From: Topomyia yanbarensis
Lineage: Eukaryota > Arthropoda > Insecta > Diptera > Culicidae
Reading direction: 5' to 3'
Assembly: GCF_030247195.1 (NCBI RefSeq)
Contig: NC_080671.1
Coordinates: 214,438,943 to 214,502,942 of the forward strand
Length of the DNA: 64,000 bases
Shown here in pieces: positions 13,766-60,027 of this stretch (the stretch's first letter is position 1; each line of letters starts with the position of its first letter). The translations under genes were made by a program, and so were the position numbers. The notes under the pieces are model-generated. The model worked only from the letters and a program-made list of their open reading frames with translations, did no database searches and was not told the origin of the DNA.

Positions 13766-13860
13766 ATGTCTGCAGCGTCTAGGCACTACAATAATCGGTA
13801 GACGCTATGCATTTTTGGCAGCGGTGGCCGTGTGCGGATTTTTCGGGTACCAGCACGGTG

Positions 13861-15171
13861 CACAGTGGCTGGAGGCTGGCCAAAACCTCAAAATTTTGAA
13901 ATATTGATATTTTTTTTTACGTTTTAACGACATTCAATTAGCTAGAGATTACTGGGTAGGGAAAGTTATGAAACTTAGAGCCATAGTACTCAAGTGAGAG
14001 CAAGGATGTGAAGTAAACAGATCGGAAAGCTAGAAGTGGCAGGGTCATTAGAACAGGCTTAATATCATGCGGGCTTAATTTTTGCCTTCTGATAATGAGG
14101 GTCGAGCTTAGGCAGAATAACTACGAATCACCCGAGTTCACTATCATGTGTCCTGATAAAGGTAGACGTATCTATCTTTACCGTGACAACCGGCACGGTT
14201 TGTTTACTTCACATCCTTGCTCTCACTTGAGTACTATGGCTCTAAGTTTCATAACTTTCCCTACCTAGTAATCTCTAGCTAATTGAATGTCGTTAAAACG
14301 TAAAAAAAAGAAAATTTGACTAACATAGTCGAAATAAAAAAGGAAAAAAAGAAATATTAATATTTTATATTTTTCCTAAATTTCTCATGTATTGAATGAT
14401 GTTAATCACAAAATTTTATGATTATTGGATAAGAACACGATTTTTAACGTGAGTTTAAACGTAGCAAAGTCCGGACTTTTTTATGATTTTCATTTCCAAA
14501 ACCACCATTGCTCTGTTCACTTCAAATGCATGTTGCTCTTCTGATTTTGGTCCGATTTTAGCACAACTAGTTTCATTGTGTAGAAGAACGAAAGAACTTG
14601 ATTAGTGAATAAAATACATTTGGTAAATTTGCTTGGAACTATGACTTTCGTTTAAATATGTTTGTGGTGATCAGATCAAAAATACTTTTTTCACTAATGT
14701 ATTCCGTACAAATTTCGGAATCATTTCGGAACGGTCACATAGTATACATTCTATAGGAAAAAACCTCTATTTTTCGAATATCATGGTCTCGTTCTGCGCC
14801 TAGGTGCGCAAAAGGTTTAAGGAGATTTTGAAGATTTGTTACTGATATGGAGGCACAGGGTGTTTTGTGTAAAATAGTTAGACAATCTACAGTAAACCAA
14901 CACGTTATACAATGGATTTAAAGTAGTGTTCTTCACTTTTTATGATATTGCTGACATATGTGAACAGTAACGGAAAATCTATCATGAAAACGGGATCATA
15001 GTTATAAGAATGGTTCAATGACACTGTATGGAAAAATGCATTTAATATTTTACGACTTTTGGCATCAAAAATGAGCTCAGCACCTCAAAATTAGCTTAAA
15101 TTGTGATTTTCAGCCAAATTTGGTAACATTTGAGGTTTTGTCCGACTTTTGTTTGAAGACCCGCCACTGTG
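13861..15171. mobile_element. Non-autonomous Transib element with RSS-like 12/23 ends
   Basis: Left end: heptamer CACAGTG (13861-13867), 12-bp spacer, nonamer-like CCAAAACCT (13880-13888). Right end, read inward on the minus strand: CACAGTG (15171-15165), 23-bp spacer, ACAAAACCT (15141-15133). A 5-bp duplication CGGTG borders both ends (13856-13860, 15172-15176), and U3 (34347-34351) and U4 (56499-56503) keep a single CGGTG at the empty site. CACWRTG heptamers and 5-bp GC-rich duplications define Transib, the relatives of RAG1; the two spacer lengths match the 12/23 layout of V(D)J signals. The 1.3-kb interior is AT-rich without a transposase, so it must have been moved in trans. Confidence 0.85.
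13919..14302. repeat. 100-bp inverted repeat inside the Transib element
   Basis: Arms 13919-14018 and 14202-14302 are inverse copies with about one mismatch visible, separated by 183 bp. The ends of the arms are ACGTTTTAACGACATTCAAT and its inverse. No flanking duplication is obvious. It could be a nested foldback or a product of gene conversion; it would fold into a long hairpin if transcribed. Confidence 0.8.
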
Positions 15172-16251
15172 CGGTGTCACAGAATGATTTGCAAAGTGGG
15201 TGGGTGGGGTGGTTTGGAATTAATTCAATACGGCAGGATGCGACTTATGTGCGCTGCTTGAGATTGTTGCGTTGAAAAAAATATTTATTTGTATGCATGC
15301 GTGTGCGTTGTAACTTGTTAATCCATGTGAACGGCGCTTTGTAGCTGCGTAGGGTAAAGAGCCTATTGGTTTTCATATGTTTCATATTTCGGTTATATGT
15401 GATATATATTTCGGTTTTATGTTGTTTATCAGTAAGGCATCTGACAACGTGCGTCTGTAGTTATTGCACTGTTCAGCAGTGTAGTATTTCAGTCAGTTCG
15501 ATCTGAACATTCAGAGTGACCGGTGCTATCAATCGCAAGCTATTTTCCCTGTAGTTTTTCGACAGTTCAAGGGTATTTATTGTGGTGATAGTGACGATTA
15601 AAACGCTGATCGGTATACTGGCCGTCGATTCCCGACGGGAAGTGCCAGCTATAGGGTGAAAGTAGTGAGATTTTTGGAGATAAACAAGACGAAGTTCTGG
15701 TATAGAAAGTGCTATAGCTAGTGATACTAAGCGAAACTCGACCAGGGCAAGGCATCACGCCATCCGGCGAGGACGTCATAGTAATAACGTACAGAAGAAA
15801 AAAAGCTTCGCATATAGTCCGCAAAGGCTCAGTTGAGTGCAAGAAAAATTCAAGCGTGCAATCTTGATCGCAAGATAAGAGAAATGGGATAGTAAAAGTG
15901 CGAGTCGCGAATGGGCCGTCGACTCCCAAAGCGAAGTGAAAAATCTGCCTGTAGACAAGACAATTTCGGATTCCGGTGTTAAAAGTGCAATCCCGTGACT
16001 AGGCGAGTGAAGTCCGGTAAAAGTGTCGAGCTCTGTTACAATCGTGCATCAAACGTTGAACGCCAGTCGAAAGCTCCGACTGAAATCTCACGCAGTAATA
16101 AGTTCAGTTTATTGTGTACAAGGCAGCACATATCGTGACAAAGTGCAACAAGAATCTTTTACTTGCGACCGTAGTCGAATAGGGGAGAGCATTCTTCGGC
16201 CAGTAAATTGAACCACCGAGGATACAGCCAAAAGTTTTTGCAAGGTAACGA

Positions 16252-17706
16252 ATGACTTCGGACCTGCGGCCCCCGGACGGGGGGCCGTCAGCTAGTCATG
16301 CTAAACCGCTTTACATGAATACCGGCGACGTTATCGACCAGCAAACCCTTCTGCTACGGGCAGTCCGTGACGTCGACGGTAACATTGCAAAATTGCCAGC
16401 TGATCCTTTCATCATCTATCACACGCTAAAACAAGTGCTGGGTATCGAACCAACGAAGGTTATTTCGGCGGCCAAAGAGGCGAGAGGTGCACAATATGTA
16501 CTCCGAACATCTTCTAGGAAGGTATACCATCATCTGCTAAAAGTCGACAAACTAACGAATGGCCAATCAGTGGAGATAATCCCCCACCCAATTTTGAACA
16601 AAGTACAAGGGGTAATACACAACCTAGATACCATAACTATGGATACCGATACGTTGCTGAGTAAGCTAAAGGAGCAAAACGTGATTGAAATAAGGAGAAT
16701 AACAAAAAAAGTTAATGGGAACCATGTTAACACACCTCTGCTGGTGCTATCTTTCGAAGGTTCATATCTTCCTGACGACATATTCATCGGCCTAGTGAGA
16801 GTAAAAGTAAGGCGGTATTACCCGAGCCCCATGCAGTGTTTCCGATGTGGAAAGTTCGGACATGGAACAAGAGTCTGCACCCAAAAAGAGATATGCCTAA
16901 ACTGCAGTGGAGAGCACCAATCGAACAAAGACAATCCCTGTTTAGTACAAAGCAAATGTGTTAATTGCGGTGCTGAACATTCTGCGAGGGATAGAGGGTG
17001 CCCGGTACAAAAAATGGAAACCGATATAATCAAAGTTAAAACAGACCGTAATATTACTTTTTCCGAAGCAAGAGCGATAGTCAGCCAAGCCAGCGGACCT
17101 TCGTATGCCGCGATACTGAAAGGGAAGATTACACCTGATTCAGACGTGAGAGACCGAATCATTCGAACACTACAAGACGAGGTCGCCAAACTCAAAGAAC
17201 AGGCGTCAACCAACCCGCCGACCGAAGATAAAGATGACGAGATAAAAAAATTGAGAGAAGAACTAACTAAAACTAGGACAGAAAACAAAGAACTTAAGAA
17301 CGAGATGGTCGCTCTGAAACGCGCTTTTAACGATATGAGAAACCACCTCATGTCGAAAAGGCAGGAAGAACAAGCAAAAGTCATGGGACCTCCAACGCCA
17401 ACGACCAACACAAACAACCGGGACCCGAGAACGACATCAGCGGATAGAATACTAGCATCCAAAGTGACTGCTGCTCAGACAAACCCAGACGACAGAAGGG
17501 CCAGTCGCAGCAGAACCAAAGCGGAGCGCGAAACGGAAGCACTAGACAAGTCACGTAGCCCACTCAGTAATGATAGCAAGAGGAGAGCAATCGATTTCAC
17601 GACGGCAGGAAAAATCAAACCAGGATCAACTTCAATCAACCGCGCATCTATAACGGAAAGACCCGCCAATAAAGAAGGCAGAGAGAACATATATACATCT
17701 GACTAA
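16252..17706 (+). CDS. I-clade LINE ORF1: Gag-like zinc-knuckle protein (484 aa)
   Basis: ORF1 binds element RNA and forms the retrotransposition particle together with ORF2; this role is inferred from family. The N-terminal half (about residues 40-190) resembles the RRM-like region of I/Jockey Gag-like proteins. Three knuckles follow: CFRCGKFGHGTRVC (from residue 196, canonical CX2CX4HX4C), then CLNCSGEHQSNKDNPC and CVNCGAEHSARDRGC (variant spacing). Residues about 310-370 are a charged coiled coil (LREELTKTRTENKELKNEM). The C-terminal 110 residues are basic and rich in Ser, Arg and Lys. ATG at 16252 is the first in frame after the 5' UTR, and there are no internal stops. Confidence 0.88.
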   Translation: MTSDLRPPDGGPSASHAKPLYMNTGDVIDQQTLLLRAVRDVDGNIAKLPADPFIIYHTLKQVLGIEPTKVISAAKEARGAQYVLRTSSRKVYHHLLKVDKLTNGQSVEIIPHPILNKVQGVIHNLDTITMDTDTLLSKLKEQNVIEIRRITKKVNGNHVNTPLLVLSFEGSYLPDDIFIGLVRVKVRRYYPSPMQCFRCGKFGHGTRVCTQKEICLNCSGEHQSNKDNPCLVQSKCVNCGAEHSARDRGCPVQKMETDIIKVKTDRNITFSEARAIVSQASGPSYAAILKGKITPDSDVRDRIIRTLQDEVAKLKEQASTNPPTEDKDDEIKKLREELTKTRTENKELKNEMVALKRAFNDMRNHLMSKRQEEQAKVMGPPTPTTNTNNRDPRTTSADRILASKVTAAQTNPDDRRASRSRTKAERETEALDKSRSPLSNDSKRRAIDFTTAGKIKPGSTSINRASITERPANKEGRENIYTSD

Positions 17707-17772
17707 AAACCCCACGAATAACAACTACAGCTACATATCAACAAACACAAAAAGCAAAACAACAACTAACAA

Positions 17773-20700
17773 ATGGCAACAACACCAACAACGTCACCAC
17801 CAACAACAGAGACAGCTACAGCTGCAACAGATACAACAGCAACGGCGAATCGTCCAAGGAAAACAACAACGAACAGTACAGCAACCCTGGAAGCGGCAGT
17901 AATAACCGTGTCAACAAAGATCACGGCGAGAGCATCAACAGCACCACCAGGCACCAAACCCGTAAAGAAAACCAAGTCCAGCATGAAAGATCCAGCCAAC
18001 CTAAGAGTACCAGATAGCGAACAGCCCCAGGGCAGCCTACCCGCATCGACCCTGTCCGGGGAAGCACTGGTTCCTACCGCTGAGCCCCCGGCGGCTGTCG
18101 GTGTGGGACGACCGGAAAACCCCAGGGCAAGTATTGCAACATCATACAGTTCAGGACCAACCACTCTCACCCTACTTCCCCACCCAGATACCTTCAACAA
18201 ATGCAAACTGAACGACAGGAGCTCGCAGTCGAGAGTGTCCCCCAAGACGCAGCGCAAAGACAACAACTTCAGCCCACACGAAAATAACGTCAACTCGCTG
18301 AGAACAACAGATTCACAACACGAACAAGATAACACCACCGACAGATCACCCGTAAGAAGCAGAGCGTATAGGGAAGAAGCCTTCTCTCCTGCACTAGCCC
18401 CGACCGGGGAAGTCCCGAGCGTGGTCGAAGAGCCCCCGGCGGCTGCTGGTGTAGGGGGCCCGGTTCCCCTCCGGGTAAGTAACCAACATCATCATGCAGC
18501 GCCTGAACAAACTACTGCCCCAAAACTAATTACAGGGAAAGTGAAAGATTACATCGAACCAACACACAGGACATCCACCAACTGCCTGAAACCAACAGAG
18601 AAGACAGCCAACGAAAGCGCCGAAATTATCACATTTAAACCAAAAAACAAACATGGCACCATAACCAGTCAAGCGACTTTAGGAAAAAGCCGCTCGAGCC
18701 GATCTGTCCTCCGCACACCAGATCAGAGACAACATACGGTTACCATTAACAAGCAGAACGGCCTTCCGTCCCCGATGACCTCGGTACAACAATCGCCTGA
18801 TCGATGTTCCAGCCCGATCGCTGGGTGCTCCTGGCACCCGTTACCCTGCTGCCTTAAGCACCAGACAATGAAGGCATTCGAACGAAAAAACCCGAAACCC
18901 TACGTTAACACAACGTTGAACACACCAACTACTCCGCATCTTGTCACCGGCGATCATGTTCCGCCGAAAATCATCATCCAGTTGCCTTCAAAGCCCATGT
19001 CCGATACTGCATCGCACCCACCAAGCGGACACAACCCAACAACAATCTTAACAGCAATAAAAGAACCAGAAAACAGGAAAGCACAAGTCATCATGAATTA
19101 CAACCAGATTCAACACAGCACCGGCAATATTCCCCCAACTTCGAAGAATATTATATTTAACAGTCGGCAAGCAGAGACTTCCAGTCACTCAACGGGATTC
19201 AGCCGATTAGGGGAAAAAGCCTATTCCCCCGTGCCGGCCCTGACCTACGATGTACCGGTACCAACCGATAAGCCTTGGGCGGCTGCTGGCACGGGGGACC
19301 CGGCCCCCCTCCGGGTAAGTCGCTCTCGCGTCAATCTGTACGACCCTATTGCTGCCCCTATTCTTTTCCCAGGGCGCACCACGATCAACTCATCACCAAC
19401 ATCAGAGTTAACTCAATCGCTCATCAGTAACACCTACTCTTCGTTGCCTAGCCCAAGAACGACCCCTCGACAGGAACACATATCGCTTGCTATCCAGTGG
19501 AATACAAATGGATTGAGACAAAACCTCGGTGATCTACAAGCCATAATTAGTCGTTACAATCCGATCGTACTAGCTATACAAGAAACACACATTCTACCCA
19601 ACACCGACCTATCCCCATGGTTTGGTAACCGATACGAATGGGATCTTTCCGGAGGAACAAACATATACCAAACCATCGGCATTGCAATTAGGTCTGACAT
19701 ACCAGCCGAAAAGATTAACCTGGATACCGAGTTAATAGCTATTGCTAAAAGAATCACGTACCCTACCCCGTGCACTATGGTATCTGTCTACATCCCACAA
19801 GAAGTTGAACAAGTAGGCTCGAAATTGGACCATCTTATCCGTCAGCTACAACACCCTTTCTTGATTATGGGTGACATGAATGCACACCACAACGCCTGGG
19901 GCTCCAACCGCCCCAACCAACGAGGTCATAGCATCCTTCAAGCAGTTGAAAACAACGAAGCCGTTATTTTGAACGACGGCAGTCCAACGTTCATAAGAGG
20001 ACGAACAACATCGTCGATTGATTTAAGCATATGTTCAAGTGGTATGGCCCAGGAATGCCTATGGTCAGTATTCGGCGATTTGTGCGGCAGCGACCATTTT
20101 CCTATCGAAATATCCTACAAGCGTGCACCTCCAATGACGTCACGACGTAGAAACTGGCTATACAAAGAAGCTGATTGGAATGTTTATGAGGAAAACTTCC
20201 TCAATCATTTCGACGGGAACAAGCAATACTCCCCCGACGAGCTGTCGGAAATAATTAGTCAATCTGCAGAACCTTGTATTCCTAGGACTAGTGGAAGACC
20301 CCCTAAGAGAGCAGTGTACTGGTGGGGAGCTGATGTAGCCAAAGCTATCAAGAACCGTCGCAAGGCCCTTCGAACCCTACGTAAAACACCAACCGACCAC
20401 ATCCTTTGGGAAAAAAGGCTGGTAGAATTTCGTAGTACGAGGAACACGGCGAGAAAGGTTATCGCGAATGCCAAAGCTTCCAGCTGGGCCGAGTTCCTCG
20501 ATGGAATCCACCCGAACTCTTCAACGGAGGAAATTTGGAGGAGAGTGAACGCTTTAGGTGGCAAGCGAAGGCACGACGGTTTCACACTTGAAATTAACGG
20601 TGTCGTGACGGCCCAACCCGACGAAATAGCTAACGAAGTCGGCCGCTATTTCGCCTCGCTTTCAGCAACGGACTCCTTGCCACCTGAATTCATTAAATGC

Positions 20701-23079
20701 AAGAGGTTGATGGAAATGTCACCAGTTATTTTCGATCCCGACTCTAGTCAGGATTGGAACAGACCGTTCTCTGGCAGAGAGATGACAGAAGCACTCAGCA
20801 CAACGCGCGGTAAAGCAACTGGTATCGACAATATCGGGTACCCACTGCTCAAACACTTGCCACCAGAAGGCAAGAGGGCGTTGCTGGATGGATTTAACCG
20901 TATATGGGAAGGACCACTTCCAGAATCGTGGCAAACTGCGCTCGTCATACCCATTCCAAAACGAACGCAAGGGAAAAGATCTCCCAAAGATTTCAGACCC
21001 ATCAGTCTTCTACCTTGTCTCGGAAAAACTTTTGAGCGAATGGTTAATCGCAGACTAGTCACGATCCTAGAGCAACGGAATCTTCTGGACCAACGCCAGT
21101 TCGCATTCCGAAAGGGCGCGGGAACCGGGACATACCTTGGTTCCCTAGGAGAAATTCTCGGACAGGCAATGAAGGATGGACTCCACACCGACTGCGCAGC
21201 ACTTGACATCGACAAAGCCTATAATACCGTTTGGCGTGAGGGAGTTCTTCGGCAGCTCCATAACTGGGGAATACAGGGAAATCTTGGACACTATATCGAA
21301 AGATTCTTCAAAAATCGTAGCTTCCGAGTCGGTATCGGGGGCAGTACATCAGATCTTTTCATCGAAGAAAATGGAGTTCCTCAAGGTTCAGTCTTGGCCG
21401 TCACACTCTTCTTGGTGAGCATGCAACCTCTTTTCGCGGTTCTGCCGAAGGGAGTGCTCGTGTTTGTTTACGCAGACGATATTGTGCTATTGGTAGTCGG
21501 TAAAACAACTGCCAGAATACGGATAAAACTGCAGGCAGCCGTAAATGCGGTTCGCAAGTGGGCCGGGTCCGTAGGTTTCCGAATTTCGACAAACAAAAGC
21601 ATAATCTCTCATTTCTGCCCAACAAACCACCTTGCATCCAACAGACCTATCTACATTGATGGCGCCGTTGTCCCGTTCAAAAAAGAGCCAAAGATACTAG
21701 GGATAACATTGGACCGTAAACTCACTCTCACCCCACACTTCCGGAAACTCAAAAAAGAGTGCGAAAGCCGAAAGAGACTGGTTCGCACCATTTGCTCTCG
21801 GCACCCCAAAAATAACCGCCAGCTCGCTCTAAACATCAGCCAGGCTATAATCCACAGCCGTATATATTATGGTATTGAACTGACCTGCAGAAGTTTTAAC
21901 GAAATGACGACCATCCTAGCTCCGCTGTACAACGGTACCATTCGTGCGGCCTCCAGCTTGCTACCTAGCACACCGGCGGAGAGTGCTTGTGTAGAGGCAG
22001 GTGTTCTACCCTTCCGCTGGATGGCGGCTATCGTGGCACTCCGGCGAGCACTCGGTTTCCTCGAACGAACTTCCGGCGAAACAGAATGCATAATACAGAA
22101 CATAGCCAATACGATCTACGAGGAATTCTCAGACTCTCCCCTGCCTCCGCTGGCACGTCTCCACCGGGTCTGGCATCGCCCATGGAACTCGAGACCCCCC
22201 AGCATCGATTGCTCGCTCTCACGGACGATTAAAGCGGGCGCTGCTCCCGCAATTGCTCGAACTGCGTATTACCAACTAATGAATCGCCGTTTCTCAAACC
22301 ATACGAAACTATTTACTGACGGATCAAAAACCGACACGACTGTTGGAGTGGGTATCAGTGGTATAGGGAACGGTCTTGCCTTCAAACTGCCAGCCGCTAC
22401 CTCCATTTTTTCGGCCGAAGCCGCGGCTATAGTACTGGCTCTAGCAAGAAAGCCCGACGATGTTGCTACCGTTATTTGTTCCGACTCCCTATCCGTGATT
22501 TCAGCACTAGAAACCGGAAAATCGCGTCACCCTTTTGTTCAGGCGATTGACAACTACAACGACCCTCTCACCACCATATGCTGGGTCCCCGGACATTGCG
22601 GGATACCCGGCAATGAAAATGCGGACCATCTCGCCGCACTTGGGCGCTCATCACGATCGTATCTTACCAGAGAAGTACCGAAAGACGATATCACCAAGAT
22701 AATTAAACGAGAAGTATACCTTCACTTCGAGAGGAAATGGAGAAGTTCCTCAGGTCATCTTCACAAGATTAAAAACTCTGTCCAAAAATGGGAAGATCGT
22801 AGCAACAAGAAGGAACAACGAATATTCTCGAGGCTTAGGACTGGACATACTAGGACCACACATGCCCACACTCTGGCCCGCGTCGACGTTCCGATGTGTA
22901 ACACGTGCAGTACAAGGCTGTCCGTTGAGCACATCCTAGTCAACTGCATCGAATTCGCCGATCTTCGCAGGAAATATTGCTTGCCCACTTCCATCAGGGA
23001 CGTACTGGCTAATGACTCCGCAAGCGAGGAAACCCTTCTCTTGTTTATCCAGGAAGCCAACCTCTTCGACGCCATCTAA
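17773..23079 (+). CDS. I-clade LINE ORF2: endonuclease, reverse transcriptase, RNase H (1768 aa)
   Basis: Intact polyprotein. Residues 1-570 are a Pro/Thr/Asn-rich extension without a recognised fold, holding three copies of a motif of about 33 residues (near 86, 203 and 483; core PPAAAGVGGPVPLRVS). Endonuclease about 572-790: QWNTNGL, QETHI, GDMNAHHNAWGS (from 700), CGSDHFPIEI (about 771). Reverse transcriptase about 1020-1320: RPISLLPCLGKTFERM, LDIDKAYNTVW, GVPQGSVLAVTLF and the catalytic YADD (1233-1236). RNase H about 1510-1640: LFTDGSKTD, CSDSLSV, VPGHCGIPGNENADH. The C-terminus has CNTCSTRLSVEHILVNC, a CCHC-like motif. The extension makes it unusually long for the clade; the start could lie further inside. 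Confidence 0.9.
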   Translation: MATTPTTSPPTTETATAATDTTATANRPRKTTTNSTATLEAAVITVSTKITARASTAPPGTKPVKKTKSSMKDPANLRVPDSEQPQGSLPASTLSGEALVPTAEPPAAVGVGRPENPRASIATSYSSGPTTLTLLPHPDTFNKCKLNDRSSQSRVSPKTQRKDNNFSPHENNVNSLRTTDSQHEQDNTTDRSPVRSRAYREEAFSPALAPTGEVPSVVEEPPAAAGVGGPVPLRVSNQHHHAAPEQTTAPKLITGKVKDYIEPTHRTSTNCLKPTEKTANESAEIITFKPKNKHGTITSQATLGKSRSSRSVLRTPDQRQHTVTINKQNGLPSPMTSVQQSPDRCSSPIAGCSWHPLPCCLKHQTMKAFERKNPKPYVNTTLNTPTTPHLVTGDHVPPKIIIQLPSKPMSDTASHPPSGHNPTTILTAIKEPENRKAQVIMNYNQIQHSTGNIPPTSKNIIFNSRQAETSSHSTGFSRLGEKAYSPVPALTYDVPVPTDKPWAAAGTGDPAPLRVSRSRVNLYDPIAAPILFPGRTTINSSPTSELTQSLISNTYSSLPSPRTTPRQEHISLAIQWNTNGLRQNLGDLQAIISRYNPIVLAIQETHILPNTDLSPWFGNRYEWDLSGGTNIYQTIGIAIRSDIPAEKINLDTELIAIAKRITYPTPCTMVSVYIPQEVEQVGSKLDHLIRQLQHPFLIMGDMNAHHNAWGSNRPNQRGHSILQAVENNEAVILNDGSPTFIRGRTTSSIDLSICSSGMAQECLWSVFGDLCGSDHFPIEISYKRAPPMTSRRRNWLYKEADWNVYEENFLNHFDGNKQYSPDELSEIISQSAEPCIPRTSGRPPKRAVYWWGADVAKAIKNRRKALRTLRKTPTDHILWEKRLVEFRSTRNTARKVIANAKASSWAEFLDGIHPNSSTEEIWRRVNALGGKRRHDGFTLEINGVVTAQPDEIANEVGRYFASLSATDSLPPEFIKCKRLMEMSPVIFDPDSSQDWNRPFSGREMTEALSTTRGKATGIDNIGYPLLKHLPPEGKRALLDGFNRIWEGPLPESWQTALVIPIPKRTQGKRSPKDFRPISLLPCLGKTFERMVNRRLVTILEQRNLLDQRQFAFRKGAGTGTYLGSLGEILGQAMKDGLHTDCAALDIDKAYNTVWREGVLRQLHNWGIQGNLGHYIERFFKNRSFRVGIGGSTSDLFIEENGVPQGSVLAVTLFLVSMQPLFAVLPKGVLVFVYADDIVLLVVGKTTARIRIKLQAAVNAVRKWAGSVGFRISTNKSIISHFCPTNHLASNRPIYIDGAVVPFKKEPKILGITLDRKLTLTPHFRKLKKECESRKRLVRTICSRHPKNNRQLALNISQAIIHSRIYYGIELTCRSFNEMTTILAPLYNGTIRAASSLLPSTPAESACVEAGVLPFRWMAAIVALRRALGFLERTSGETECIIQNIANTIYEEFSDSPLPPLARLHRVWHRPWNSRPPSIDCSLSRTIKAGAAPAIARTAYYQLMNRRFSNHTKLFTDGSKTDTTVGVGISGIGNGLAFKLPAATSIFSAEAAAIVLALARKPDDVATVICSDSLSVISALETGKSRHPFVQAIDNYNDPLTTICWVPGHCGIPGNENADHLAALGRSSRSYLTREVPKDDITKIIKREVYLHFERKWRSSSGHLHKIKNSVQKWEDRSNKKEQRIFSRLRTGHTRTTHAHTLARVDVPMCNTCSTRLSVEHILVNCIEFADLRRKYCLPTSIRDVLANDSASEETLLLFIQEANLFDAI

Positions 23080-33660: not shown

Positions 33661-34191
33661 AAAAAAATTACCAAACACGGAGTACGTGAGTTGTAATTTT
33701 TTGACATTAAAAATGTCTTACTCCACTATCTGGAGCTAGGTGTCATTCTAAAATCTAAACTATCTCCCATGTAACGAAACTATGTAAGGTTTGCACGCTT
33801 ATAACTCCGATATTACTAGATGGATTTTAATCATTCATACACCAACCGATTCAGAAACACTTAACTTAAATATTGGTAATAATTTAATATCTCCCCAATA
33901 AGAGTAGACTTTTGGAAATTGGTAAAATTAAAAAGTTCACGAAAAATGGGAAAATTACCAGTCGTGAGGCAGATTTCTCAGACACAGCCGTCAAAAGAGG
34001 GCAGCTTAGTTGCTCAATGAAACATGAAAAGTCATAAATAGAAGCAACGCATGTCCGTTTAAATCAGTTGTTGCTCTTATCCCATACGAGCAACATCGTC
34101 TCCGGGCGATGCAATAAGCGCTATCGATTTTCGATAACGTTGGCATTTGCACACACTCGCACCTAAGTGACTAAACCATATACGGTTAGTT

Positions 34192-34256
34192 TATAAATGG
34201 AGGTGACGCGTACCCGTTTGAATCAGTTTTTGTTCTTATGTCGAACGGGTAAGATC
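34192..34256 (+). promoter_or_regulatory. Predicted core promoter of U3
   Basis: TTATAAATGG, TCAGTT with +1 at 34225, CGAACGG at +18, AGATC at 34252-34256. Confidence 0.55.
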
Positions 34257-34643
34257 ATGGCTGCAGCGTCTGGGCACTACAATAAGCGGTTGACGCTATG
34301 CATTTTCGGCAGCGGTGGCCCTGTGCGAATTTTTCGGGTACCAGCACGGTGTCACAGAATGATTTGCAAAGTGGGTGGACGGGGTGGTTTGGATTTAATT
34401 CAATACGGTGTGTGCTGCTTAAGAGTGTTGCGTTTGAAAAAAATATATTTATTTTTATGCATGCGTGTGCGTTGTAACTTGTTAATCCATGTTTACGGCT
34501 CTTTGTAGCTGCGTAGGGTAAAGAGCCTATTGGTTTTCATGTTTCATATTTCGGTTATATGTTTTTTATCAGTAAGGCATCTGACAACGTGCTTCTGTTG
34601 TTATTGCACTGTTCAGCAGCGTAGTATTTTATATAGGAGAGTA

Positions 34644-34759
34644 CACTCAGGTTTTTTTACGCGGATTTTGAAATTTACGCGGTTTTCATCATCGCGTTTT
34701 TTTAATTTACGCGGTTTTCATTTACACGGCCTGTATCCCCTGCGTGAAAAATCTGAGTG
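34644..34759. mobile_element. CACTCAGG MITE in U3
   Basis: TA-flanked; the interior has an extra ACGCGGTTTTCATC repeat compared with the U1 and U2 copies, shared with U4. Confidence 0.65.
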
Positions 34760-35388
34760 TAATTGCATCGGAAATAATCACATTCCCAGCAAGAACTTTT
34801 TGTTTTCTAATTTCAAACACTTTTGTTTAGTACTGCACACAACGGAAAATTTTAAAACAGAACTTACCGTCCCAGCAGCAGTTTAAGCGGGTGTTCTTTT
34901 TCGATTCAAATTCAAGCCATGTCTTAAGCGTTACTGGACTTAAAATTGTTTTCCCAGTTTATCCATTCAGAATATCTGTCCTACCCTATGTATTTAAAAC
35001 ACAGTTCAAATTGCGTTTTAAAGTATACAACAAATAGAACGGTTGGGTATACTAATTTAAATTTTAAAGTAAATCTGTTTTAAATTATTAAACAAATCGC
35101 TGTACTTAAGATATAATTATGTCAGTCCTATTACCACATAAAACAGCTATATAACATAAAACGCTGCAGAATTGGTTTAATAATACAATGTACAATACAC
35201 TACAGAGTTATAACACGTTTTAATAATTAGCAACAAGAAAAATGTCACCAAGATAGCATAAAAACCCGTTTTAACTGGTAGTGCGAACGTTGCATAACAA
35301 TGTTATTTATCAAATAATTTCATTTTTTCCACCACTAATCGATCAAGAAATACTTAAACTTAAGATTGTTTACTTAAGTTCATTAGTA

Positions 35389-36351
35389 GGGGAACATGGG
35401 GAGACTTTTCAGCTAAAACTGCATAAATCTCTAAAAAAGCCTTCAATCCCCCAAAAATCATTCAGATATAATGCGCAAAGTTATTGCGCGTCTTCATAAT
35501 TTTTTGTAGAATTTTTAATTTAATTTTTGAAAAGTTACAAAAGTTTTTCTGTGATCGTTTTTCTGGTCAAGTCTCCCCATTGCGGGGAGACTTGACCAAG
35601 GCGTGGGGAGACTTGACCAAGAGAATTTTGAAAAATCATAACAAAAAATAATGACATAAAACATACTGTAATTATTTTTTCCCTATTGTCGAGATCCTTA
35701 GGTAGCAGTAAAAAATATAAAAGAATTGCATTTGATAAATTTTGATTTTTTTAAATGCATTTCTTTTTAAGGATTAACTGTACTGCTTGCATTGCATGTT
35801 CACACGTCACGAAATCAGTCCTACTATTGCTAACTTTGCTTACAAATTTTAAAATATAAAGACTTATGTTTGGGGTGGGATTTTTTTTATGGCGATTAAC
35901 ATTAACAGTAGATACCAAAGCATAATAAATATTGGGAATTTTGTATCTTTCTTCAACTGATCGCCACTTGGTCAAGTCTCCCCATAAAATCTTGGTAAAG
36001 TCTCCAATTTCATGCGATTTCTAGTAAAAACTATTCCAATGTTCCAGTTTATGTAAAATCATTTCACTGCTTCACAAGGATTAAGATGGTAAATTAGTCC
36101 TTTAATAGTAATTAGTAGTCGAGTAGATATGACCATACAAAGTTTGATAAAAAATTACATCATTTAATGCAAATTTATTTATCACGTAATATTTTCTGCA
36201 AGGAAAGGATTTTTTACTCCAAACTTTCAAAATTACCTTAAGAGATCGAAACAAGTATAAGAATATTTTTGAAAAAAAATTAAGAATCGGATAGAAGACG
36301 CCATAGCCGAAAATAGAATTTTGCGCTTGGTCAAGTCTCCCCATGTTCCCC
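35389..36351. mobile_element. TA-flanked TIR element with AAGTCTCCCC subrepeats, in U3
   Basis: Ends GGGGAACATGGGGAGACTT and its inverse, between TA at 35387-35388 and 36352-36353. U2 keeps the empty site with one TA. CTTGGTCAAGTCTCCCC-type words occur in opposing orientation near 35567-35625, at 35968-36005 and at the right end. Noncoding; a relative in design, not in sequence, of 4996-6344. Confidence 0.85.
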
Positions 36352-36619
36352 TACATTTTAGTGTTTCCGTTGGCGGGCGTGGGCTTCCTCATCAAAGCTC
36401 TCAATATGGAACCTTTCTTTTGAATATATTTTCTGGACAGACCAGCCTATTTTTACTAGATGGATCAGCCAAATAATGCCAATCACCTAGTGAGATACTT
36501 GATTAATTAATAGATTACCGTTAAAAGACCTTCAATAAATTATGTTTTGATGGGGAGGGTATATAGCAAATTGCAACATATGAAAACAGGCGAGTGAACA
36601 AGAACGTGAGTCGATATGT

Positions 36620-37389
36620 CGTCGCTGTTGTGCTATCTTATGACAAGCGCCATTTAGCTCATTTCGAGAAAAACGATTTTTAAAGTTTGAGATTGAATAT
36701 CTTGAAAATTATAAATGGTATAAACAATTCAATGAAGACAATTGATGCTTCTATCTATTCTTTATAAATCTCTCAAATATTATGAGGATCGGTTGACTAT
36801 GTTGCGAGTTTTGACTATAAATGTAAACAAAAGTCGCACTCACACGTGTCATAGGTGTGTATAGATGACAAAATTTGTATGGCGTGTCATAACCGTGCAT
36901 GGAAAATTTTTCATAGAAAAAAATCATCGATTATTAACTTTTATTCATATGTTTGGTTTAGTTTGGCCTATAAACAATCGGTGAGATGCATTTTAAAGGA
37001 AATGAGTCAGAGAATCTAGCAAAAATAGTTATTTTTGGTTACAGTGTTGCCAAATATGCTATATTTCCAGTTTAAAACTAAAACTACATTTTTCTCACAA
37101 TTCGTGTAATTTTATTTTGAAAATTATTATGCCATTGTGTTCTTTAGAGAGTTTTACACATAAAAACATCTTATATATCAAGATACCTTGAGGTAATCCT
37201 TAGACACAGTCATTTGAAGCAAAAAATTCAAAATTTCTCATCATGTTTTTAGCTATATCTCAGTAACCAAGCAGAATATCAAAATTCTGAAAACGCCACT
37301 TTGTAGAGATTTTTTAGACACGTGATGTGGCATATCTATCTCAGTTTACCCCAAAATGGCGTTTGTCATAAGATAGCACATCAGCGACG
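36620..37389. mobile_element. MITE with 26-bp TIR and ATGT duplication, in U3
   Basis: TIR CGTCGCTGTTGTGCTATCTT and six more bases, one mismatch between ends. ATGT lies on both sides (36616-36619, 37390-37393), and U2 has the single site CGATATGTGTGATAG. Noncoding; superfamily unknown. Confidence 0.85.
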
Positions 37390-37479
37390 ATGTGTGATAG
37401 ATAAAATTCATTTGCACGCTCTTGAAAAAAGCTAAATTTTTAATGTCACTGTGGTCGTGTCCTGTACACAACCCTTTAA

Positions 37480-38454
37480 TTTTTTTTTCATGGATTGACC
37501 TTTTCCTGAATCGAGGCCTACGTGAAATAGTGCTCATCGATTAAACAATTCTCCGGGTCCGTTTATTTTGTTTGGATTATAAACCCTTGCTACAGATGGA
37601 TATTATGAATTTACCTTTCTGCGCTGTAAATCAATTCCAACTGAATTTACTGATTAGGTTGCTGTTTATAAATTTGTCGCATTCCTATTTTATTTTTATT
37701 TATTGTAATCCTGTTTTGATTCTATATTTTTAATTACTTATTCCTAGACGTCGTATTTATTTATTCTAATATTCCCGTTCACAATCTCACACATTTGGGT
37801 ACCCTTTGAACTCTTTCATTCCCCATTCATTCCTCTTTTCATTAATCCTTAATTTCCTAGTCTACCTTAACTATCATCCATCTAGCAGACAAGCGATATC
37901 TACATAGACACTGCTAATTAGAAGATAAGATCCCTCTTCTAATCCTACGACGAGGCAAATAACCTGCTACTTCATCGGATTTTCACTATTGCAAGTTATG
38001 AAAACTTATCATATATCTCACAGAAAGAGAAAGTTTTGCATCTGTTTATGTCTGTGACCAAGTCGTTTTTTCCAAAGGAATGGTCCCTCGACTTATCGCT
38101 TTCCCTTCTTTCTAGCAAAGATGCGAGCCACTAGGTAGTTGCCAAATTTTTAAAGTGAAATAATTAATTTGACAACGCCAAACATGGTGGGAATCAAAAC
38201 AAATCCTGATTGATGCTGGTATAGTATCGTAGGCAAAAGTTTATTTCAGCAGTGGAAAATTACTAACTCTAAAAGGACCTACTTTGAAGGAGAGAGAATT
38301 GCTTTTCGCCAAACCGATTAGAACGCAATTCAATATTTATTTTATATTTTGTCGGTCGAACGAAACCATTGCGGAAAGGGAATAATTGTTACCCGTACAA
38401 GTTATTCCATTTCTCAAGTGTGAGCACTGAGTTGGATAGAGTAGTGGTTCGGTT
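37480..38454 (-). other. G2 3' untranslated internal region
   Basis: Between the integrase stop and the U3 insertion. AT-rich, no open frame of note, no env-like sequence. Confidence 0.55.
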
Positions 38455-54396: not shown

Positions 54397-56343
54397 GAGT
54401 AAAGCCATGTCAAGTGATCCTCGAATTTTTCGAAAAATCACCGATCTTCATGAGGAATATTTTATTGTATAGGGATTATGGTGAATAGGTTTTGGTATAA
54501 ATTTCGTTAAAATTCCTTTTTTTCTTTAAGATATTAACTCTTAAACTTTATTTCATCATAAAATTGTAAATTTTATATCTCAAAAACTACTGAAGGTAAT
54601 TCAATGAATCTTTGCACACTTATGGAATGATACTTTCACTATCTTATAAAAATGTTTTACTTTATAATTGTGTGAATAACGGTACTTTGCATCTATTTAA
54701 AATTTGTATTTTTTCTTGTGTTCTTCACGCTACAAATTTTCAAAACGTATATCAAATTATGCGGCAATCTTTCACCTTTAATAATCTCTATTTATAATTT
54801 TTCATTTTTGTTTCTATCGAGAGTTATGGAGGATTTTGTAACAGTACACTCTTTCAACGCACGGCCCACCTTGATGCTGCCCGCGAGAACGTTCATATTG
54901 GCAACGTCGCACGTCGCTACGTCAGAATGCGCATCGCGTGGGAAGTGCGCATCGCATGTCTAAAAGAAATCACATCTCTCTATTAGCGCAAAAGGGCAAA
55001 CTTTTCTATACGGATTATCGAGGGTGATTTTTTCCGGATATTTTGAGATGCGTTAAATTTTTTTGACCGAAGTGCACAACAAAAATTATAGTTGTGTACT
55101 ATATTTTTTATTATTATAGTTTAACGTTACTAACAATTAACATCTTTAAAAACACTTTTGTTAGTCAAAATACATCTACGTTATATTCAAATTCATTTTA
55201 GTCTGCAACATTAATATATAAAAATGGAAAATCTTATGTCAACACCATTTTATTTCCCTTTTTTTCACGGAGTGATATTACCTTTAAACAACAATGTGTC
55301 TTTTGAAAAATGTTTACATAAAATCTGTTGTTCAATCACATGGATGTAGGGGTTTTTTTTATCGCTATTGCTTCTGTTAATTCTGTTAATTGGTGGTTCT
55401 CTAAGTTCTGGTAAGATATTATTTACTTTATCGAATATCAATTAATCATGTACGATCTTTATTTCAAAATCATCGTTACAGTTTTCCGCATGTACCTGTT
55501 GAGTCATCGAATATTCCAGTTCCATTACTTTGACAAACACTATAAGAAGGAAAACTAAACATGTGAATTTTACTATATTTTAAACGCGTTATAGGGGAAC
55601 CCATTACTGTAAACATGGGATGTAAAATTGAAAATTTAACGAAAATTGTGTTTTGTTCATGTCCATATTTATTTCCGTTGTATTTTTTGCACCATTTACG
55701 GCATATGCTACACATTAGGGTGTCCCAAAATGATATCATGTTAAAAAAGTCATTGGGCTCACATCTTAAATGAATGGTTAGGGTATTAGGACCACTTTCT
55801 TCTTTGGAGTGAATCTGATAAAACTCTTCCTACTAGTGGCGAATTTTGATTTTTGACATTAAAAATGTCTTACTCCACTATCTGGAGCTAGGTGTCATTC
55901 TAAAATCTAAACTATCTCCCATGTAACGAAACTATGTAAGGTTTGCACGCTTATAACTCCGATATTACTAGATGGATTTTAATCATTCATACACCAACCG
56001 ATTCAGAAACACTTAACTTAAATATTGGTAATAATTTAATATCTCCCCAATAAGAGTAGACTTTTGGAAATTGGTAAAATTAAAAAGTTCACGAAAAACG
56101 GGAAAATTACCAGTCGTGAGGCAGATTTCTCAGACACAGCCGTCAAAAGAGGGCAGCTTAGTTGCTCAATGAAACATGAAAAGTCATAAATAGAAGCAAC
56201 GCATGTCCGTTTAAATCAGTTGTTGCTCTTATCCCATACGAGCAACATCGTCTCCGGGCGATGCAATAAGCGCTATCGATTTTCGATAACGTTGGCATTT
56301 GCACACACTCGCACCTAAGTGACTAAACCATATACGGTTAGTT

Positions 56344-56408
56344 TATAAATGGAGGTGACGCGTACCCGTTTGAATCAGTTTTTGTTCTTATGTCGAACGG
56401 GTAAGATC
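56344..56408 (+). promoter_or_regulatory. Predicted core promoter of U4
   Basis: TATAAATGGA, TCAGTT with +1 at 56377, CGAACGG at +18, AGATC at 56404-56408. Confidence 0.55.
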
Positions 56409-56574
56409 ATGGCTGCAGCGTCTGGGCACTACAATAAGCGGTTGACGCTATGCATTTTCGGCAGCGGTGGCCCTGTGCGAATTTTTCGGGTACCAGCACG
56501 GTGTCACAGAATGATTTGCAAAGTGGGTGGGCGGGGTGGTTTGGATTTAATTCAATACGGTGTGTGCTGCTTAA

Positions 56575-57065
56575 GGCTCAAGTTACCTCAAGGCTTGGTA
56601 GTGTGCGTAAGAAAAATTGTGCACAGCTTTGCCACCAGATTATCCATTTAAATCTTTTCAAAACTCTAAAAGAAGAATATCAGTCGATTTATTAGATCAT
56701 CACGATTCAATTCATGCAAAATACCTGCCGGAAAAGCCATCGGCTTAGCTGAATGGTGCTTTTGAAAATGTGGCTGTGGTTTTTTCATTGCGCTGTTGTG
56801 TTGCATGCCCCAGCACGGTGTGGTAGTGTGACAAAAAATCACAGCCACTTTTTCAAAAGCACCATTTAGCGAAACCGATAGTTTTTCCAGCAGCTATTTT
56901 GTATGATTTGAATAGTTGTGATCTGATAAATCGGCTGATATTCTTCTTTTAGAGTTTTGAAAAGGTTTAAATGTATAATCCGGTGGCAAAGCTGAACACA
57001 ATTTTTCCTACCCATACTACCCAGCGTTCAAAACTAATACATGCTCAAAAACGGTAACTTGAACC
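56575..57065. mobile_element. Foldback element with TTAA duplication, only in U4
   Basis: GGCTCAAGTTACC and inverse GGTTCAAGTTACC ends; TTAA on both sides (56571-56574, 57066-57069); U3 has GCTTAAGAG empty. Nearly the entire 491 bp is two inverted arms (56575-56790 and 56837-57065) around a short loop. TTAA target suggests piggyBac or Kolobok type machinery, by inference. Confidence 0.85.
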
Positions 57066-57290
57066 TTAAGAGTGTTGCGTTTGAACAAAATATATTTATT
57101 TTTATGCATGCGTGTGCGTTGTAACTTGTTAATCCATGTTTACGGCGCTTTGTAGCTGCGTAGGGTAAAGAGCCTATTGGTTTTCATGTTTCATATTTCG
57201 GTTATATGTTTTTTATCAGTAAGGCATCTGACAACGTGCTTCTGTTGTTATTGCACTGTTCAGCAGCGTAGTATTTTATATAGGAGAGTA

Positions 57291-57406
57291 CACTCAGGTT
57301 TTTTACGCGGATTTTGAAATTTACGCGGTTTTCATCATCGCGTTTTTTTTAATTTACGCGGTTTTCATTTACACGGCCTGTATCCCCTGCGTGAAAAATC
57401 TGAGTG
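57291..57406. mobile_element. CACTCAGG MITE in U4
   Basis: TA-flanked; same position and interior duplication as the U3 copy. Confidence 0.65.
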
Positions 57407-58032
57407 TAATTGCATCGGAAATAATCACATTCCCAGCAAGAACTTTTTGTTTTCTAATTTCAAACACTTTTGTTTCGTACTGCACACAACGGAAAATTTT
57501 AAAACAGAACTTACCGTCCCAGCAGCAGTTTAAGCGAGTGTTCTTTTTCGATTAAAATTCAAGCCATGTCTTAAGCGTTACTGGACTTAAAATTGTTTTC
57601 CCAGTTTATCCATTCAGAATATCTGTCCTACCCTATGTATTTAAAACACAGTTCTAATTGCGTTTCAAAGTATACAACAAATAGAACGGTTGGGTATACT
57701 AATTTAAATTTTAAAGTAAATCTGTTTTAAATTATTAAACAAACCGCTGTACTTATGATACAATTATGTCAGTCCTATTACCACATAAAACAGCTATATA
57801 ACATAAAACGCTGCAGAATTGGTTTAATAATACAATGTTTACACTACAGAGTTATAACACGTTTTAATAATTAGCAACAAGAAAAATGTCACCAAGATAG
57901 CATAAAAACCCGTTTTAACTGGTAGTGCGAACGTTGCATAACAATGTTATTTATCAAATAATTTCATTTTTTCCACCACTAATCGATCAAGAAATACTTA
58001 AACTTAAGATTGTTTACTTAAGTTCATTAGTA

Positions 58033-58997
58033 GGGGAACATGGGGAGACTTTTCAGCTAAAACTGCATAAATCTCTAAAAAAGCCTTCAATCCCCCAAAA
58101 ATCATTCAGATATAATGCGCAAAGTTATTGCGCGTCTTCATAATTTTTTGCAGAATTTTTAATTTAATTTTTGAAAAGTTACAAAAGTTTTTCTGTGATC
58201 GTTTTTCTGGTCAAGTCTCCCCATTGCGGGGAGACTTGACCAAGGCGTGGGGAGACTTGACCAAGAGAATTTTGAAAAATCATAACAAAAAATAATGACA
58301 TAAAACATACTGTAATTATTTTTTCCTATTGTCGAGATCCTTAGGTAGCAGTAAAAAATATAAAAGAATTGCATTTGATAAATTTTGATTTTTTAAATGC
58401 ATTTCTTTTTAAGGATTAACTGTACTGCTTGCATTGCATGTTCACACGTCACGAAATCACTATCCTACTATTGCTAACTTTGCTTACAAATTTTAAAATA
58501 TAAAGACTTATGTTTGGGGTGGGATTTTTTTTATGGCGTGATTAACATTAACAGTAGATACCAAAGCATAATAAATATTGGGAATTTTGTATCTTTCTTC
58601 AACTGATCGCCACTTGGTCAAGTCTCCCCATAAAATCATGGTAAAGTCTCCAATTTCATGCGATTTCTAGTAAAAACTATTCCAATGTTCCAGTTTATGT
58701 AAAATCATTTCACTGCTTCACAAGGATTAAGATGGTAAATTAGTGCTTTAATAGTAATTAGTAGTCGAGTAGATATGACCATACAAAGTTTGATAAAAAA
58801 TTACATCATTTAATGCAAATTTATTTATCACGTAATATTTTCTGCAAGGAAAGGATTTTTTACTCCAAACTTTCAAAATTACCTTAAGAGATCGAAACAA
58901 GTATAAAAATATTTTTGAAAAAAAATTAAGAATCGGATAGAAGACGCCATAGCCGAAAATAGAATTTTGCGCTTGGTCAAGTCTCCCCATGTTCCCC
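58033..58997. mobile_element. TA-flanked AAGTCTCCCC element in U4
   Basis: Same insertion point as 35389-36351 of U3; TA at 58031-58032 and 58998-58999. Small indels only relative to the U3 copy. Confidence 0.85.
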
Positions 58998-59265
58998 TAC
59001 ATTTTAGTGTTTCCGTTGGCGGGCGTGGGCTTCCTCATCAAAGCTCTCAATATGGAACCTTTCTTTTGAATATATTTTCTGGACAGACCAGCCTATTTTT
59101 ACTAGATGGATCAGCCAAATAATGCCAATCACCTAGTGAGATACTTGATTAATTAATAGATTACCGTTAAAAGACCTTCAATAAATTATGTTTTGATGGG
59201 GAGGGTATATAGCAAATTGCAACATATGAAAACAGGCGAGTGAACAAGAACGTGAGTCGATATGT

Positions 59266-60027
59266 CGTCGCTGTTGTGCTATCTTATGACAAGCGCCATT
59301 TAGCTCATTTCGAGAAAAACGATTTTTAAAGTTTGAGATTGAATATCTTGAAAATTATAAATGGTATAAACAATTCAATGAAGACAATTGATGCTTCTAT
59401 CTATTCTTTATAAATCTCTCAAATATTATGAGGATCGGTTGACTATGTTGCGAGTTTTGACTATAAATGTAAACAAAACAATGTAAACATAGGTGTGTAT
59501 AGATGACAAAATTTGTATGGCGTGTCATAACCGTGCATGGAAAATTTTTCATAGAAAAAAATCAACGATTATTAACTTTTATTCATATGTTTGGTTTAGT
59601 TTGGCCTATAAACAATCGGTGTGATGCATTTTAAAGGAAATGAGTCAGAGAATCTAGCAAAAATAGTTATTTTTGGTTACAGTGTTGTCAAATATGCTAT
59701 ATTTCCAGTTTAAAACCAAAAATACATTTTTCTCACAATTTGTGTAATATTGTTTTGAAAATTATTATGCCATTGTGTTCTTTAGAGAGTTTTACACATA
59801 AAAACATCTTATATATCAAGATACCTTGAGGTAATCCTTAGACACAGTCATTTGAAGCAAAAAATTCAAAATTTCTCATCATGTTTTTTGCTATATCTCA
59901 GTAACCAAGCAGAATATCAAAATTCTGAAAACGCCGCTTTGTAGAGATTTTTTAGACACGTGATGTGGCATATCTAACTCAGTTTACCCCAAAATGGCGT
60001 TTGTCATAAGATAGCACATCAGCGACG
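59266..60027. mobile_element. ATGT-flanked MITE in U4
   Basis: Same position as 36620-37389 in U3; ATGT at 59262-59265 and 60028-60031; carries a small replacement near 59475-59490 relative to U3. Confidence 0.85.

What the first reader, a model, noticed from the sequence alone, without database searches (positions are those of the whole stretch)
13861..15171. Transib element with a 12-spacer signal at one end and a 23-spacer signal at the other
Directly seen: CACAGTG-12 bp-CCAAAACCT on the left and CACAGTG-23 bp-ACAAAACCT on the right, pointing inward, with a CGGTG 5-bp duplication and single CGGTG empty sites in U3 and U4. The V(D)J signal consensus is CACAGTG-12/23-ACAAAAACC. Transib is the known relative of RAG1, and similarity of its TIRs to RSS is established; an individual copy with this exact 12/23 asymmetry and a near-consensus nonamer is a striking example.
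Basis: partly seen in the sequence, partly recalled or inferred. Interest (0 to 1): 0.9.

Follow-up and report, generated by a model that had tools for sequence, protein, structure and literature searches.

The report
Jumping gene with antibody-recombination-like 12/23 ends
This is one copy of a common, gene-less jumping element, probably in a mosquito genome, whose two ends carry the same lopsided 12/23 layout that vertebrates use to cut and join antibody genes; the resemblance was already known for a few insect elements, but here it holds in two distantly related families and comes with natural spacing mutants that could be used to test the rule.

Summary
Confirmed. Window 13861-15171 is a non-coding Transib-type element: CACAGTG-12-CCAAAACCT left, CACAGTG-23-ACAAAACCT right, 5-bp duplication CGGTG, two exact empty sites. 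In 40 compared copies (at most 39 independent) the left spacer is 12 in 40 and the right 23 in 38; target duplications are mostly CGNCG. Genome-wide, the 12-spaced left end occurs at 1,122 places and the 23-spaced right end at 1,235 (reversed-pattern controls 0); altered spacings are rare where scanned. A second, distantly related family (561 left, 524 right ends) has the same layout, though half its spacer bases differ and the middles do not align. Against this: the autonomous Transibs found (4 groups, both ends seen in 11 of 13 loci) are symmetric, no transposase with 12/23 ends was found, and the nonamer matches only 6/9 (left) and 7/9 (right). In both families the right end has a nonamer-like motif at spacing 12 as well as 23, and 11-bp deletions at five loci turn 23 into 12. 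12/23 Transibs are already in print (Kapitonov and Jurka 2005, seen only through a later paper): a new member of a known kind, useful as a natural test set for the 12/23 rule.

The parts
13861..15171 (+). non-autonomous Transib-type element, this copy (family consensus 865 bp without the nested insert)
13861..13867 (+). left heptamer CACAGTG
13868..13879 (+). left 12-bp spacer GCTGGAGGCTGG
13880..13888 (+). left nonamer-like CCAAAACCT (6/9 to ACAAAAACC)
15165..15171 (-). right heptamer CACAGTG
15142..15164 (-). right 23-bp spacer
15144..15152 (-). second nonamer-like motif ACAAAAGTC at spacing 12 inside the 23-bp spacer (7/9)
15133..15141 (-). right nonamer-like ACAAAACCT at spacing 23 (7/9)
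13856..13860 (.). target-site duplication CGGTG, left copy
15172..15176 (.). target-site duplication CGGTG, right copy
34347..34351 (+). empty target site CGGTG in a related repeat copy
56499..56503 (+). empty target site CGGTG in a second related repeat copy
13914..14350 (.). nested 437-bp insert with long inverted arms (13911-14024 / 14196-14309), flanked by 16-bp direct repeats 13898-13913 and 14351-14366 (15/16 identical); not part of the family

Best explanation
It is one copy of a high-copy, non-coding (MITE-like) Transib family that is cut out and pasted in by a Transib transposase supplied in trans. Shown: RSS-like ends with a 12-bp spacer on one side and 23 on the other, 5-bp CGNCG-type target duplication, empty sites, the same geometry in nearly every compared copy, and the same geometry in a second, distantly related family. 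Inferred: the transposase cuts at the CACAGTGG heptamer, binds the A-rich motif about one (12) or two (23) helical turns away, and pairs unlike ends as RAG does; selection on transposition keeps the lengths while spacer sequence drifts. The enzyme that moves it is not identified.
For: Structure and empty sites. 40 copies: left spacer 12 in 40/40; right 23 in 38/40 (36 by script, L016 and L024 read by eye) and 12 in 2 (one duplicated insertion); TSD identical in 39/40, CGNCG in 32 of those 39. Genome: 1,122 left and 1,235 right ends with up to 3 substitutions, reversed controls 0. These patterns allow no indels, so they show abundance; rarity of other spacings comes (7 right ends with 12; 11 left ends with another length, exact flanks). 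Second family: 561 left, 524 right ends, controls 0; left spacer 12 in 17/17 fetched stretches, right 23 in the 7 of 17 whose right end was recognised. The families are 70% alike over the first 143 bp, 67% over the last 112, without alignment between; spacers agree in only 6/12 and 14/23 bases yet keep length, heptamers 7/7. Transposase genes exist: Fam A protein to 6pqn E 1.3e-116.
Against: No autonomous element with 12/23 ends was found; groups A-D have the same end on both sides. Nonamer and heptamer columns are not clearly extra-conserved among young copies. Group D has a better nonamer (ACAAAAACA, 8/9) at spacing 23 on both ends, so an RSS-like 23 end does not need a 12 partner. In the scan with the exact consensus nonamer, spacing 23 (3 of 26 hits) is no commoner than spacings 8, 10, 20 or 24 (3 each). 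Copies read as 5/23 with intact TSDs exist (L089, L093): mutated after insertion, or the rule is lax. The 40 copies are the top-scoring set of 3,876 candidates and favour intact copies. Right spacings other than 12 and 23, and all other spacings of family 2, were not scanned genome-wide. Fixation inside one family could be descent from few source copies; only two families speak for constraint, and they share ancestry at their ends.
Confidence: 0.7

Rival explanations
1. Descent without rule: it is a non-autonomous Transib family, but 12 and 23 are frozen accidents copied from a few source elements; the transposase reads only about the first 15 bases (CACAGTGGC...) and does not care about spacers.
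For: Autonomous Transibs seen here are symmetric. Nonamer not extra-conserved in young copies. Copies with exact TSDs: 5/23 L089 CGGCG and L093 CGCCG, 5/12 L082 CGTCG. PMC7204232 (passages) proposes that invertebrate RAG-like (RAG1L-RAG2L) complexes, not Transib itself, use about 15-17 terminal bases and are relatively insensitive to asymmetry.
Against: Two families with unalignable middles and half-changed left spacers keep exactly 12 and 23; spacing mutants look like rare singletons: 7 places with right spacer 12, 11 with altered left spacer, and none forms a clear subfamily.
Confidence: 0.35
2. Composite right end: the 23 end is a 12-type end with a second nonamer one helical turn further in; the enzyme may use either motif, so the element is functionally 12/12 or 12/(12+23).
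For: Right end of family 1 = CACAGTG-12-ACAAAAGTC-GG-ACAAAACCT, an 11-bp unit repeated at 8/11 identity (composition shuffles reach such a repeat in 3.8%); family 2 has ACAAAGTTG at 12 and ACAAAATTA at 23; old copies L087 and L088 keep the two steps in degenerate form. 11-bp deletions recur at 5 loci that differ in flanks.
Against: The 12-phase motif is weak in family 2 (5/9). 12/12 derivatives have not visibly amplified. An ancestral 12/12 stage was looked for in three old copies and not supported.
Confidence: 0.3
3. Chance resemblance in a single copy.
For: The nonamer match of this copy is only 6/9 and 7/9.
Against: Over a thousand copies of each end with none in the reversed controls, and a second family with the same layout.
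Confidence: 0.02

Closest known systems
Transib families with 12/23 ends: Transib5 (Drosophila melanogaster), Transib2, N1, N2, N3 (Anopheles gambiae), from Kapitonov and Jurka 2005 (paper not held; known here through passages of PMC8355894)
   Same: RSS-like heptamer and nonamer, spacers about 12 and 23, 5-bp TSD, members in a mosquito
   Different: Sequences of those ends were not available here, so relatedness could not be tested; in this genome the 12/23 families are numerous and the autonomous Transibs whose ends I saw are symmetric
Transib transposase of PDB 6pqn and sister entries (that this is Hztransib is recalled)
   Same: Transposase of the same family as Fam A in this genome
   Different: PMC8289069 (passages) describes Hztransib ends as symmetric with little or no nonamer similarity
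Vertebrate 12RSS and 23RSS
   Same: Heptamer CACAGTG exact, 12 and 23 spacers, A-rich nonamer
   Different: Nonamer 6-8/9 in the two families; whole element moves; pairing rule not tested
ProtoRAG (amphioxus) ends
   Same: Asymmetric ends of a RAG-like transposon
   Different: 27/31 spacing and no distinctive nonamer according to PMC8355894

Membership tests
Transib superfamily | terminal CAC-starting inverted repeat, CACAGTGG-like | tested here: met
   shared with autonomous groups of the same genome
Transib superfamily | 5-bp GC-rich target-site duplication | tested here: met
   identical in 39 of 40 copies, CGNCG in 32 of those 39; empty sites
Transib superfamily | encodes a RAG1-core-like transposase | tested here: not met
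   longest listed ORF within the window copy 57 aa; filed only as a non-autonomous member. Transposase genes lie elsewhere in the genome; which one moves it is unknown
12/23 RSS-type ends | heptamer CACAGTG at both ends | tested here: met
   exact in 40/40 left ends but one (L033 CACAGTT) and 40/40 right ends but two (L014 CACAGCG, L024 lacks the first C)
12/23 RSS-type ends | spacers of 12 and 23 bp, one of each | tested here: met
   with abundance; register uncertain by one base on the left
12/23 RSS-type ends | nonamer close to ACAAAAACC | tested here: inconclusive
   6/9 and 7/9 in family 1, 8/9 and 6/9 in family 2; not extra-conserved in young copies
12/23 RSS-type ends | recombination prefers unlike spacers (12/23 rule) | not testable with these tools
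   needs transposase and cleavage assay

The most novel reading that the evidence does not exclude
A Transib transposase that works without RAG2 enforces a 12/23-type pairing rule on these families, and the 23-type end is a 12-type end extended by one helical turn with a duplicated nonamer, so that the two signal classes interconvert by single 11-bp slips; the rule would then be older than vertebrate RAG.
Probability: 0.2. Interest if true: 0.8.

Novelty: new member of a known kind. Interest (0 to 1): 0.5.

Why it matters
Whether the 12/23 layout of antibody-gene signals came with the ancestral transposon or arose in vertebrates is open. A genome with two diverged 12/23 families, symmetric autonomous relatives, and natural spacing mutants (12/12, 5/23, 5/12, 16/12, 5/24) offers ready substrates to ask if a RAG2-less transposase distinguishes 12 from 23.

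Tried and rejected
Autonomous partner by long left-right pairs: only the first 100 places of each pattern search are listed; of these, 96 left and 85 right zero-mismatch ends lie on C1 and 57 left ends pair, 47 at 855-875 bp; six pairs exceed 1 kb. Five of those six were fetched (L048-L052) and are family copies split by other sequence, with retroelement ORFs in L050 and L051; the 12.2-kb pair was not fetched. Autonomous partner by the RAG1 model (hits all below its cut-off): six transposase groups A-F; the ends seen do not match. A-D are symmetric; in E one end CACAGTGGTACAG and a long inverted repeat are visible, the other end lies outside the fetched stretch; ends of F were not examined.

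Ancestral 12/12 idea: old copy L086 has a 12-spaced right end, but L087 and L088, the two other hits aligning through that end, have the 12+11 layout, so L086 is more simply another deletion.

5-bp left spacer as a mobile subfamily: six copies, all on C2 (chance about 0.004 if placed by size), but with distinct flanks and few shared private variants (two variants shared only by L082 and L093; one by L082, L090, L091); recurrent slippage between GCTGG repeats is simpler, a small lineage is not excluded.

Linked damage: among 7 left-altered copies whose right end was seen, 3 also have an altered right spacer (12, 12, 24), against 1 of 39 unselected copies (Fisher p 0.009). Two of the three were first met through a right-end search, 4 of the 11 left-altered places have no right end seen (one fetched without it, three not fetched), and the unselected sample favours intact copies, so I do not build on it.

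Species: no tool named it. Mosquito (Aedes-like) is my inference from three very large contigs (218, 470, 429 Mb); named relatives of the Fam A protein are insects (cricket, wasps, bee, ants, aphid).

Full report
Observation. The element lies exactly at 13861-15171 with CACAGTG-12-CCAAAACCT and CACAGTG-23-ACAAAACCT facing inward, CGGTG on both sides, and exact empty sites at 34332 and 56484. The surrounding repeat matches the empty copies at 94.5% (200 bases left) and 90-92% (60 bases right). The window has no other copy of the element. The longest listed ORF inside it is 57 aa, so it is non-autonomous.

This copy against its family. The genome search scored 40 of 3,876 first-look candidates, so its copy number is a lower bound and the 40 are the best-scoring ones. 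I compared the window copy with the 39 others. The family consensus is 865 bp; the window copy is longer because of a 437-bp insert at 13914-14350, flanked by 16-bp direct repeats (15/16) and holding 114-nt inverted arms. Identity of the window copy to the others is 93.2-97.6%.

Are the spacers fixed? Left spacer: 12 in 40 of 40. Right spacer: the script read 23 in 36, 12 in 2, 22 in 1 and none in 1; reading the printed ends, L016 has 23 before a changed nonamer, and L024 lost the first C of its heptamer but keeps 23, so 38 of 40. The two with 12 (L018, L020) have identical 60-base flanks and are one insertion; L034 and L042 may also be one insertion copied with its host repeat, so the copies are at most 39 independent. 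TSDs agree in 39 of 40; CGNCG exactly in 32 of those 39. Genome-wide, the left end with spacer 12 occurs 1,122 times and the right end with spacer 23 1,235 times, each with at most 3 substitutions, and 0 in the reversed controls. Those patterns allow no indels, so they measure abundance; other right spacings than 12 and 23 were not scanned.

Natural spacing mutants. A right end with spacer 12 occurs at 7 places: L018/L020 (12/12, TSD CGACG), L082 (5/12, TSD CGTCG), L083/L084 (left end missing), L085 (16/12, TSD CGCCG read by eye) and old L086 (left end missing). Left ends with altered spacer and exact flanking words: 8 shorter (six of 5 bp, one of 10, one of 11) and 3 longer (13, 16, 16). Of the five further 5-bp copies fetched, right spacers read by eye are 23, 23, 23 and 24 in four (exact TSDs in L089 and L093; L091 and L092 do not match exactly), and L090 has no right end in the stretch. 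These look like recurrent slips between short repeats (ACAAAA 11 bp apart on the right, GCTGG 7 bp apart on the left), not like subfamilies.

A second family. A genome-wide exact scan for CACAGTG-N(6-31)-ACAAAAACC gave 26 hits against 11 in the control; 6 of 26 had spacer 12, the commonest spacing, while spacing 23 had 3, no more than spacings 8, 10, 20 and 24 (lengths counted from the listed matches). Four of the six spacer-12 hits carry the left end of a second family (L094, L095, L097, L098; L094 aligns only over its first 33 bases); L096, a spacing-20 hit, belongs to it too. Lengths of the copies with both ends are 846-876 bp, except L098 with right-end motifs at 796 and 1,078 bp. The usual left end is CACAGTG-GCACGACGAGTG-ACAAAACCC (561 places, up to 3 substitutions) and the right end CACAGTG-GCACCTGTTCATACAAAGTTGTG-ACAAAATTA (524 places), controls 0. 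Of 17 fetched stretches (L094-L110) all have left spacer 12; a right end was recognised in 7 and all 7 have 23; TSDs are exact in 3 of these 7, one mismatch in 3, two in 1, and L103 and L107 share the same TSD pair and length, so they may be one insertion. Four of the stretches without a recognised right end share flanks and are one insertion inside another repeat. Families 1 and 2 are about 70% alike over the first 143 bp and 67% over the last 112, and do not align between. Spacer sequences agree at 6/12 and 14/23, while both lengths are the same.

Two-step right end. In both families the 23-bp spacer contains a nonamer-like motif starting at exactly 12: ACAAAAGTC (7/9) and ACAAAGTTG (5/9), next to ACAAAACCT (7/9) and ACAAAATTA (6/9) at 23. 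In family 1 this is an 11-bp unit repeated at 8/11 identity; composition shuffles give such a repeat in 3.8%. Old copies L087 and L088 (75% and 71% to L086) have both steps, with degenerate motifs.

Conservation. In 39 young copies the left nonamer ranks at the 15th percentile of substitution among 9-column interior windows, the right nonamer at the 85th (one column separates two subfamilies), the left heptamer at the 26th among 7-column windows. Such young copies say little about constraint; the comparison of the two families is the better test.

Transposases. The RAG1 model gives only hits below its cut-off in the genome scan, yet the ORFs there include 718-aa frames, one of whose products matches the PDB transposase 6pqn at E 1.3e-116 and RAG1 or RAG1-like chains at 2e-4 to 0.25 (PF12940 at 27.1 bits over a cut-off of 25). 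Of 13 loci taken around such ORFs (L068-L080), 11 show both ends, all symmetric (ends equal or nearly so over 50 bases) and starting CACAGTGGT; none was found in L072 and L078. TSDs of the five group A loci are CGGCG, CGTTG, CGACG, CTACG, CGACG; those of C and D are CATTG. The 12/23 families start CACAGTGGC and use CGNCG-type sites, so by target preference an A- or B-like enzyme or an unseen relative is the likelier source (inference). Group D (L075, L080) carries ACAAAAACA at spacing 23 on both ends, a 23/23 element.

What is known. PMC8355894 (passages read) states that Transib5 of Drosophila and Transib2, N1, N2, N3 of Anopheles gambiae have 12/23 ends, citing Kapitonov and Jurka 2005, which is not held. 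PMC6941560 (passages) says some Transib ends have RAG-like heptamers and nonamers but spacers of various lengths. PMC8289069 (passages) says most Transib families have symmetric ends. PMC7204232 (passages) expects invertebrate RAG-like complexes to be relatively insensitive to asymmetry. PMC3442997 (passages) calls Anopheles Transib inverted repeats imperfect; PMC3212995 (one passage) only lists the superfamily. In the listings I saw no title or abstract on a two-step right end or on natural spacing mutants of Transib; these are listings from an open-licence library, so that is weak.

Verdict. The kind is known; the copy number, the second family, the two-step right end and the natural mutants are what this case adds. 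The 12/23 rule itself is not shown here.

Noticed in passing
13856-15176; L034, L042: Three family copies sit at the same base of the same dispersed repeat (CGGTG/CACCG); L034 and L042 are in the opposite orientation to the window copy, so at least two separate insertions hit one site.
   Followed up: partly
13914-14350: Nested 437-bp insert with 114-nt inverted arms, 16-bp direct repeats and an A-rich 3' part; absent from the 39 other sampled copies.
   Followed up: partly
16252-23079: Two long ORFs (484 and 1,768 aa), the second with endonuclease and reverse transcriptase domains: probably a non-LTR retrotransposon just downstream of the insertion.
   Followed up: no
33698-37484 and 55850-60122: Large repeats, 98-99.7% identical, about 22 kb apart, that carry the empty sites.
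   Followed up: no
L075, L080: Autonomous Transib group with a 23-spaced ACAAAAACA (8/9) on both ends, TSD CATTG: a natural 23/23 element.
   Followed up: partly
L063, L074 and over 100 rows: A very numerous Transib transposase group (mostly a 389-aa frame) with near-identical scores across the genome, suggesting recent spread.
   Followed up: no
L082, L085, L092: Copies whose left and right spacers are both altered (5/12, 16/12, 5/24) seem more frequent than expected from single rates; ascertainment is biased.
   Followed up: partly
C2:69068159-69071544, C2:21849131-21851260, C1:121987219-121994197 of G000: Long left-right pairs of the second family (3.4, 2.1 and 7.0 kb, read from the lists), possible split copies or longer relatives; not fetched in full.
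   Followed up: no
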